A DNA stretch of 64,000 nt, taken from Periplaneta americana. Lineage: Eukaryota; Arthropoda; Insecta; Blattodea; Blattidae. The position numbers and the translations under genes were made by a program. The stretch covers positions 25,951,891-26,015,890 of the forward strand of contig NC_091127.1 in NCBI RefSeq assembly GCF_040183065.1, given 5' to 3'. A model generated the notes under the pieces. It did no database searches. It was not told the origin of the DNA and saw only the letters and a list, made by a program, of their open reading frames with translations. This document shows, piece after piece, positions 1,766 through 2,522 of this stretch. Every line of letters begins with the position of its first letter. Position 1 is the stretch's first letter.

Positions 1766-1982
1766 TTGTGTATGAACTTACAAAGAATTCAACAATTTGA
1801 TTTAGATAAGAGCTACATGTATACAAGAGTTATTTACGAATTAAACAACAAAAAACTATGAACTATTAATTAAACACTGAAATACTATATATATTTTGAT
1901 GTACCGAAGTACATATGATATTTCCATGCAGATATTCTGCGTCATCATATGATGAAAGAGTGATGGAACGGAGAAAAATTCT

Positions 1983-2054
1983 CTCCGGCGCCGGGATTTG
2001 AACCCGGGTTTTCAGCTCTACGTGCTGATGCTTTATCCACTAAGCCACGCCGGA
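1983..2054 (-). other. tRNA-Tyr(GTA)-like head, minus copy
   Basis: Reverse complement of the cloverleaf at 2365-2436, with acceptor, D, anticodon and T arms preserved. It is part of the left arm of the palindromic element and is not an independent tRNA gene. Confidence 0.7.
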
Positions 2055-2364
2055 TACAACCCCGACGCCGGTTAGAATCGTCTCATCATATGATGACGCA
2101 GAATATCTGCATGGAAATATCATATGTACTTCGGTACATCAAAATATATATGATATGCGTAATAAATCACTTTGTGATTTAAGACGGCGCCCATACCGTC
2201 GGATCCCGGCCAACCAGTCACTCATTCGAGTGCACCTCAACACGTGTATGGACTTCGGTCCTGCGTTCATAGACATCTATGACGTAGTGGAGAGGGCGGC
2301 CACTAGAGGGAACCCAAAAGATGGAGCTTAATCTGAGACGATTCTAACCGGCGTCGGGGTTGTA

Positions 2365-2436
2365 TCCGGCGTGGCTTAGTGGATAAAGCATCAGCACGTA
2401 GAGCTGAAAACCCGGGTTCAAATCCCGGCGCCGGAG
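2365..2436 (+). other. tRNA-Tyr(GTA)-like head, plus copy
   Basis: The acceptor TCCGGCG pairs 7/7 with CGCCGGA. The D stem is GCTT/AAGC, the anticodon stem is TCAGC/GCTGA with loop ACGTAGA (anticodon GTA), and the T stem CCGGG/CCCGG is perfect with loop TTCAAAT. Position 33 is C instead of the near-universal U, and the intron usual in eukaryotic tRNA-Tyr genes is absent. This fits a SINE head better than a decoding tRNA. The B box GGTTCAAATCC is intact. Confidence 0.7.
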
Positions 2437-2522
2437 AGAATTTTTCTCCGTTCCATCACTCTTTCACCACTGAAATACTAACTATGTAGCAGAATTAAGC
2501 TAAAATACATAGAATGTTAATA

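What the first reader, a model, noticed from the sequence alone, without database searches (positions are those of the whole stretch)
1888..2467. Inverted-dimer SINE-like element with tRNA-Tyr-like heads on both strands
Two loci (also 41531-42576) show the same architecture: antisense tRNA head, unique middle, sense tRNA head, AT tail, with 13-14-bp target duplications at the outer edges. SINEs are normally single-headed; a foldback with a pol III promoter at each end could transcribe both strands toward or away from the centre and give double-stranded or self-folding RNA. Two independent insertions with the same palindromic layout mean that the dimer itself is the mobile unit. The mechanism is inference.
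Basis: partly seen in the sequence, partly recalled or inferred. Interest (0 to 1): 0.75.

Follow-up and report, generated by a model that had tools for sequence, protein, structure and literature searches.

The report
Self-inverting tRNA-headed retroelement family
The finding is real: it belongs to a large family of short jumping elements with a tRNA-like promoter, and many of its copies were inserted together with a mirror-image copy that seems to be made afresh at insertion rather than inherited as a fixed double unit.

Summary
Both foldbacks exist as described, with 13-14 bp target duplications. Corrections: the AT tail is at the outer left end only, the middle holds a second (sense) copy of the tail, and locus 2 is split by a 385-bp TIR element. 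The family looks high-copy (first-look candidates 1459 and 6881, 40 scored each). The unit is S(tRNA-like)-T(tail)-B(body), 384 bp, often in tandem. In a sample found with one sense T-B-S unit, 28 of 38 copies are inverted, 3 direct, 7 undetermined; in the older subfamily 11 of 20 are inverted, 9 not visibly so. Units of one copy share subfamily alleles, while the same centre junction recurs in different haplotypes. So the inversion is probably re-formed at insertion; a fixed dimer is unlikely to be the mobile unit. A sequence-unrelated tRNA-Ser-headed family (window 1035-1387) has the same architecture. Tandem units, inverted end, terminal palindrome and target duplications resemble Penelope-like elements, apparently very abundant here (48157 first-look candidates). 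I propose two-strand, Penelope-like target priming on a tandem RNA. No sequence link to a Penelope element was found; the driver is inferred.

The parts
1888..2467 (-). Element E1 (whole): minus strand = S'-B'-T'-S-T
1875..1887 (.). target-site duplication, left copy (CACTGAAATACTA)
2468..2480 (.). target-site duplication, right copy
1888..1955 (-). T: tail with GTAC-TTCG-GTAC hairpin and AT end, outer (3') end of the element
1953..2085 (-). S: head unit with tRNA-like 1983-2054 followed by TTTTT
2083..2151 (+). T: second copy of the tail, inside the element; starts with the 14-nt palindrome TCATCATATGATGA
2157..2333 (+). B: body
2334..2466 (+). S: head unit with tRNA-like 2365-2436; exact A box TGGCTTAGTGG and B box GGTTCAAATCC
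41531..42576 (-). Element E2, older subfamily, same layout, interrupted by a TIR element at 41685-42069
41517..41530 (.). E2 target-site duplication, left
42577..42590 (.). E2 target-site duplication, right (1 mismatch)
42474..42545 (+). E2 right tRNA-like
1035..1387 (+). Element F (second, sequence-unrelated family, tRNA-Ser-like head 1260-1330) with the same inverted architecture
1024..1034 (.). F target-site duplication, left (TGAATAGAAAC)
1388..1398 (.). F target-site duplication, right (TGAATAGCAAC, 1 mismatch)

Best explanation
A family of short non-autonomous retroelements built from a 384-bp unit (tRNA-like head S, tail T, body B). The template RNA is a tandem run of units (inferred). 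A Penelope-like reverse transcriptase (inferred) opens the target and primes on both target strands: one cDNA starts inside the RNA at the AT end of T, the other at the palindrome centre at the S|T border, which is then the RNA's 3' end or a second priming site. Both run upstream and their 3' ends are joined head to head, typically through a few nucleotides of complementarity, often at the tRNA, whose acceptor-stem strands are complementary (copies L022 and L011). This writes an inverted copy into most young insertions; when only one cDNA is made, a direct, 5'-truncated copy results. The mirror arms are therefore made anew from one RNA sequence at insertion. Shown: unit, tandem copies, inverted copies, recurrent ends, TSDs, likeness of units within a copy, recurrence of junctions across haplotypes, a second family with the same plan. 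Inferred: Penelope machinery, two-strand priming, tandem RNA, and any role of the tRNA in RNA processing.
For: Segment maps of 30 copies: one outer end at the S|T palindrome and the other at T's AT end, except L003 and L020 (script placed the edge in other sequence) and L030 (truncated in B). TSD at least 12 bp in 27 of 30. B units: within-copy distance 0.99% vs 2.11% after shuffling 29 units among 12 copies, 0 of 2000 shuffles as low (between-copy mean 2.29%). Non-CpG diagnostic sites in B: alternative allele in all units 16 times, mixed 3; shuffled mean 4.5, maximum 10. Private changes in B hit some units only 27 times, all units twice, so arm-to-arm gene conversion after insertion is not the cause. 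The junction AAAAAT|TCCGGCG occurs in haplotype 1 (L009, L012, L018, L019, L026) and haplotype 2 (L016, L020); AAAAATT|GTATCC in haplotypes 1 and 3 (L029, L030), one T shorter in haplotype 2 (L023). F family: 27 of 29 distinct loci inverted (selected by a palindromic query), TSD at least 11 bp in 26 of 29. Penelope comparison: tandem copies, inverted pLTR, terminal palindromes, two-strand cleavage and extension, internal initiation (PMC3846280, PMC11167929, passages read). The window's putative GIY-YIG ORF has 48157 first-look candidates, 150 scored. An inverted pair straddles it in 6 of 20 loci within 1600 nt, 4 of 20 within 1000 nt, against 4 of 120 control flank stretches of 1000 nt, one of which (L031) holds E1 itself.
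Against: T and B share no more than 20-23 nt pieces (best E 0.011) with 20 Penelope-like loci (about 1.5 kb each side of the endonuclease), apart from an E copy lying in L077; pLTRs may lie outside. The GIY-YIG call is weak (Pfam SegE_GIY-YIG E 0.014, PDB 1mk0 E 0.9). No hammerhead core in the E, F or G unit (with a positive control). Penelope TSDs in the passages read are 8-10 bp, these 11-16 bp. The tidy pattern 'junction concentric on one tRNA' (rho 0.95, 30 copies; 0.94 for 21 distinct junctions) comes from copies ranked by likeness to E1; in the older subfamily it is absent (8 of 11 inverted copies scored, rho 0.37, p 0.37), and of four inverted copies from the less selected sample only L103 fits, L102, L105 and L106 do not. 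So acceptor-stem self-priming is at most one of several joining routes. T shows more mixed than concordant sites (11 against 7). A ready-made dimer lineage within one haplotype (5 copies with one junction) is not excluded. Only 2 of 9 'direct' older copies have a clear TSD (L089, L096; L085 weak), so some may be broken inverted copies rather than direct insertions.
Confidence: 0.5

Rival explanations
1. The inverted dimer is a fixed mobile unit, transcribed as one foldback RNA.
For: Recurrent outer ends and TSDs; five haplotype-1 copies share one junction with varied unit number.
Against: Several distinct junctions inside each haplotype and the same junction in different haplotypes; units of a copy share alleles; n and m vary; copies without visible inversion. 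Private changes do not spread between arms.
Confidence: 0.2
2. Ordinary SINE moved by a LINE; the inversions are unusually frequent twin priming.
For: AT tail, TSD length like SINEs (10-15 bp in Blattella SINEs, PMC9191728); a LINE-type RT ORF lies in the window (33106-34284, RVT_1 E 1.3e-37); short homology at junctions (read).
Against: Inversion in 28 of 38 and 11 of 20 sampled copies, with long overlap of the two arms and tandem units; the same plan in a second family. No further match to T was found in the window; LINE ends were not searched genome-wide.
Confidence: 0.25
3. Foldback DNA transposon or MITE that captured a tRNA.
For: Long inverted repeats.
Against: The two ends differ (AT tail vs S|T palindrome); AT tail of variable length beside 12-16 bp TSDs; tandem units.
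Confidence: 0.03
4. Assembly error or chance rearrangement at single loci.
For: Palindromes are assembly-prone (general knowledge).
Against: TSDs at 27 of 30 loci with different flanks, and distinct junctions.
Confidence: 0.02

Closest known systems
tRNA-derived SINEs (e.g. Sbg1-Sbg9 of Blattella germanica; PMC9191728: abstract, passages and part 1 of 2 of section 8 read)
   Same: tRNA-like head with A and B boxes, short, non-coding, simple tail, 10-15 bp TSDs; a dimeric member (Sbg9) exists; six of 30 junctions here lie at S27-28, 11-12 nt before the A box, close to their 11-nt start rule.
   Different: Most sampled copies do not begin at the tRNA; they carry an inverted unit; tandem units; a run of five T follows each tRNA. 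From the text read, Sbg9 is composed of Sbg1 and Sbg8; its orientation was not stated there.
Penelope-like elements (PMC3846280, PMC11167929; passages read)
   Same: Tandem or partial-tandem units, inverted copy at one end, terminal short palindrome, TSDs; AT-rich targets, internal initiation and extension of both target strands are reported for Penelope enzymes (not tested here).
   Different: No coding capacity here, tRNA-like head, no hammerhead, no sequence shared with 20 Penelope-like loci of this genome, longer TSDs than in the passages read.
Metazoan non-LTR retrozymes (PMC7229834; passages read)
   Same: 150-450 bp tandem units, TSDs longer than 4 bp, non-autonomous.
   Different: No hammerhead core found; head-to-head inversions; tRNA-like present.

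Membership tests
tRNA-derived SINE | internal pol III promoter (A and B box) | tested here: met
   Exact boxes in both E1 heads and the E2 right head; tRNA covariance hits. Transcription not tested.
tRNA-derived SINE | tRNA head at the 5' end of the inserted copy | tested here: not met
   Outer ends of the 30 mapped copies are the S|T palindrome and T's AT end, apart from the three edge cases; of the 7 copies fetched from the undetermined class only L104 starts at the tRNA (S33).
tRNA-derived SINE | TSD and A/T-rich or simple 3' tail | tested here: met
   27 of 30.
tRNA-derived SINE | 3' end shared with a partner LINE | tested here: inconclusive
   No other match to T in the window; genome-wide partner search not done.
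Penelope-like element (non-autonomous derivative) | tandem plus inverted copies | tested here: met
Penelope-like element (non-autonomous derivative) | short palindrome at the unit end | tested here: met
   TCATCAT|ATGATGA in E; TTACA..TGTAA at the F end, read.
Penelope-like element (non-autonomous derivative) | shared cis sequence with an autonomous Penelope of the genome | tested here: not met
   0 of 20 loci beyond 20-23 nt pieces (the long hits in L077 are a neighbouring E copy). Only about 1.5 kb each side of the endonuclease was seen.
Penelope-like element (non-autonomous derivative) | RT and GIY-YIG coding | tested here: not met
   No stop-to-stop ORF of 120 aa or more overlaps 1888-2467.
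retrozyme | hammerhead ribozyme | tested here: not met
   0 core hits in the E, F and G units, both strands; the same scan finds both motifs of the positive control at 58691-59210. Rfam and the scan missed that control, so they are no evidence.
foldback transposon or MITE | matching terminal inverted repeats at both ends | tested here: not met

The most novel reading that the evidence does not exclude
A class of tRNA-headed elements mobilised by Penelope-type reverse transcriptase, in which the tRNA-like fold does the job that the hammerhead does in retrozymes: host tRNA processing cuts the tandem RNA, and the tRNA fold in the cDNA offers its acceptor stem as a self-priming hairpin, so that many insertions write a tRNA-capped palindrome. 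At least two unrelated families (E, F), and some copies of a third (G), use it in one genome.
Probability: 0.25. Interest if true: 0.85.

Novelty: new variant of a known kind. Interest (0 to 1): 0.62.

Why it matters
SINEs are generally held to depend on LINEs. Two unrelated tRNA-headed families with the architecture of Penelope elements, in a genome that seems packed with Penelope-like sequence, would, if the driver is confirmed, tie SINE-like elements to that third class of retroelement. They also offer many natural insertion products from which the little-known second half of such an integration could be read. Many near-perfect inverted repeats are also potential dsRNA sources.

Tried and rejected
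Gene conversion between arms as cause of identity: rejected, private changes are seldom shared (27 against 2 in B). Foldback transposon: ends unequal. Exact patterns of T, S and B in viral contigs and of T in bacterial genomes: 0 hits, uninformative for this host. Hammerhead in T (looked hammerhead-like by eye): not supported. Strict 'tRNA-centred snap-back for all copies': suggested, weakened. Query for S-T monomers: nothing returned, so single-headed S-T copies remain uncounted. Ranking artefact for the concentric junctions: synthetic copies on the diagonal scored 943-1025 bits and off it 850-996, so ranking alone does not force the pattern in the range simulated (-3 to 50 nt); wider junctions were not simulated and may be under-ranked. 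TSD control used 30-nt flanks and at most one mismatch; the wider windows had no control of their own. Pfam at E 0.001 found nothing in the putative Penelope ORFs.

Full report
What is there. The finding is correct in its core. Locus 1 (1888-2467) has two tRNA-like heads in opposite orientation, arms identical in 135 of 136 positions and an exact 13-bp target duplication; locus 2 (41531-42576) has the same plan, is more diverged, and is split by a 385-bp TIR element. I name the parts S (head, 133 nt, tRNA at S32-103), T (tail, 69 nt with AT end) and B (body, 177 nt). On the + strand locus 1 is T'-S'-T-B-S. Thus the 'middle' is a second tail plus the body, the AT tail lies only at the left outer end, and the right end stops at CTTTCA.

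Genome copies. The genome that holds the window has 3.23 Gb in 91 contigs. It looked insect-like to me; the species is unknown, and I did not test it. The locus-1 query gave 1459 first-look candidates, of which 40 were scored; 30 were fetched. All 30 are foldbacks, but they were ranked by likeness to the foldback, so that count says nothing on frequency. Their maps follow (S'B'T')n-centre-(TBS)m-T with n 1-3 and m 0-2. One outer end lies at the S|T border, within the palindrome TCATCATATGATGA, the other at T's AT end. TSDs of 12-16 bp with at most one mismatch are beside them in 27 of 30 (not L003 and L020, whose edges the script misplaced, nor L030, truncated in B; the one of L002 is low in complexity).

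How often inverted. With a query of one sense T-B-S unit (1452 candidates, 40 scored) I grouped the rows by eye into 38 loci. An inverted neighbour is visible in the listing in 21, and three more are known (L008, L015, L018). Seven of the 14 others were fetched: L102, L103, L105 and L106 are inverted, L101, L104 and L107 direct. So 28 inverted, 3 direct, 7 undetermined of 38. For the older subfamily (6881 candidates, 40 scored) I fetched 20 of the places ranked 2 to 26 (ranks 4, 12, 15, 16, 17 left out, with the listing in view but not for their structure): 11 inverted, 9 without a visible inversion. Two script labels were changed by me: L093 to inverted (its T' lies further off) and L100 to direct (its opposite-strand hit is only the palindrome). 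TSDs of 11-16 bp were seen in 8 of the 11 inverted copies (L082, L083, L084, L087, L091, L092, L093, L099) and clearly in 2 of the 9 others, so some of the 9 may be broken copies. Copies met by chance in flanks: L051 and L077 inverted, L028 and the old copy in L020 direct. All these samples need a T-B-S or B-S stretch; S-T-only copies could not be counted.

Formed anew. Within a copy the units are alike: B distance 0.99% within, 2.29% between copies, and 0 of 2000 shuffles of units among the 12 multi-unit copies reached the within-copy value. At non-CpG sites that vary between copies the minor allele is in all units of a copy 16 times and in part of them 3 times for B, 15 and 4 for S, 7 and 11 for T (shuffled means 4.5, 1.8 and 0.3). 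T is noisier, several of its mixed sites lying near its AT end. Private changes sit in some units only (27 against 2 in B, 16 against 2 in S, 32 against 2 in T), so arms seldom correct each other after insertion. Three sequence haplotypes each hold several junctions, and the same junction recurs in different haplotypes. The simplest reading is that the mirror copy is made when the copy is inserted. Inheritance of some dimers within a haplotype remains possible.

The turn. In the 30 ranked copies the centre holds one tRNA, and the distances of the two break points from the tRNA ends agree (rho 0.95; 0.94 for 21 distinct junctions). Eleven of 30 turn at the tRNA start (S32), six at S27-28; L022 and L011 are what acceptor-stem self-priming would give (read). 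In family F the break points are likewise concentric, around a point upstream of its tRNA (20 distinct junctions, rho -0.92, after leaving out L054, L056, L059 and the duplicate L057; all 28 rows -0.58). But in the less selected samples it does not hold (older subfamily: 8 of 11 scored, rho 0.37, not significant; L102, L105 and L106 off the pattern, L103 on it). I therefore treat tRNA-primed snap-back as one route, and two cDNAs joined by short homology as the general one.

Second and third families. Window 1035-1387 belongs to a tRNA-Ser-like family without detected similarity to E outside the tRNA (unit 306 bp). Of 29 distinct loci (30 fetched; L042 and L057 are one element) 27 are inverted, again selected by a palindromic query, and 26 have TSDs of 11 bp or more. 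A third family (L066, L045) has tandem units and an inverted stretch, while L036, L033 and L067 look like single-headed copies or fragments (by reading, no TSD script run).

Likely machinery. Penelope-like elements are known for tandem and partial-tandem copies, an inverted copy at one end, terminal palindromes, proposed self-priming (PMC3846280) and, in vitro, cutting and extending both target strands with internal initiation (PMC11167929). The window has a putative Penelope endonuclease ORF (8479-8967; weak GIY-YIG match) with 48157 first-look candidates in the genome. Inverted pairs straddle that ORF in 4 of 20 loci within 1000 nt (6 of 20 within 1600) against 4 of 120 control stretches of 1000 nt. 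An inverted pair of hammerhead-bearing repeats lies at 58696-59207 (its identification as Penelope-type is from recall). T and B share nothing longer than 20-23 nt with 20 such loci, and the E, F and G units have no hammerhead core. The link is by architecture and abundance, not by sequence.

Literature. In ten full-text searches of open-licence papers none of the listed titles and abstract starts describes Penelope-driven SINEs or SINE families with regular head-to-head inversion; lists were capped and subscription papers are not held. PMC9191728, PMC3846280, PMC11167929 and PMC7229834 were read in passages or single sections; the others were seen only as listings.

Verdict. Real and unusual, a high-copy family with a recurrent inversion step; a new variant of known kinds, with the driver still to be proven.

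Noticed in passing
58696-59207: Inverted pair of hammerhead-like motifs (58754 minus, exact to the motif scanned; 59116 plus, one mismatch) in 134-nt arms, probably Penelope pLTRs; a further foldback in the same window. Rfam did not flag it.
   Followed up: partly
8168-8967: Putative Penelope-like ORF ends (RT end by recall, GIY-YIG weak match); 48157 first-look candidates in the genome.
   Followed up: partly
41685-42069: 385-bp TIR element with TAA duplications (Harbinger-like by recall) inside the E2 left arm.
   Followed up: no
45778-46785: Long-TIR element (280-nt arms, 92.5%) whose interior looks like a mariner/Tc1 transposase remnant by eye.
   Followed up: no
L066 2275-3161; L045; L036: Third tRNA-headed family G (287-bp unit, T run after tRNA) with tandem, partly inverted, and single-headed copies.
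   Followed up: partly
G000 C1:11641028-11642935: Five E units head to tail in one copy.
   Followed up: no
2365-2450, 1260-1345, L066: In all three families a run of five T follows the tRNA-like within about 15 nt, a likely pol III stop that a full-length SINE transcript would have to pass.
   Followed up: no
B unit, 2299-2315: Motif CCACTAGAGGG, resembling the CTCF core by recall.
   Followed up: no
10310-11660 and 27118-29096: Very long dinucleotide and tetranucleotide-like arrays (judged from ORF translations) that give spurious ORFs of over 400 aa.
   Followed up: no
32243-34284: LINE-type RT ORFs (RVT_1 E 1.3e-37 for 33106-34284); no match of E tail T elsewhere in the window.
   Followed up: partly
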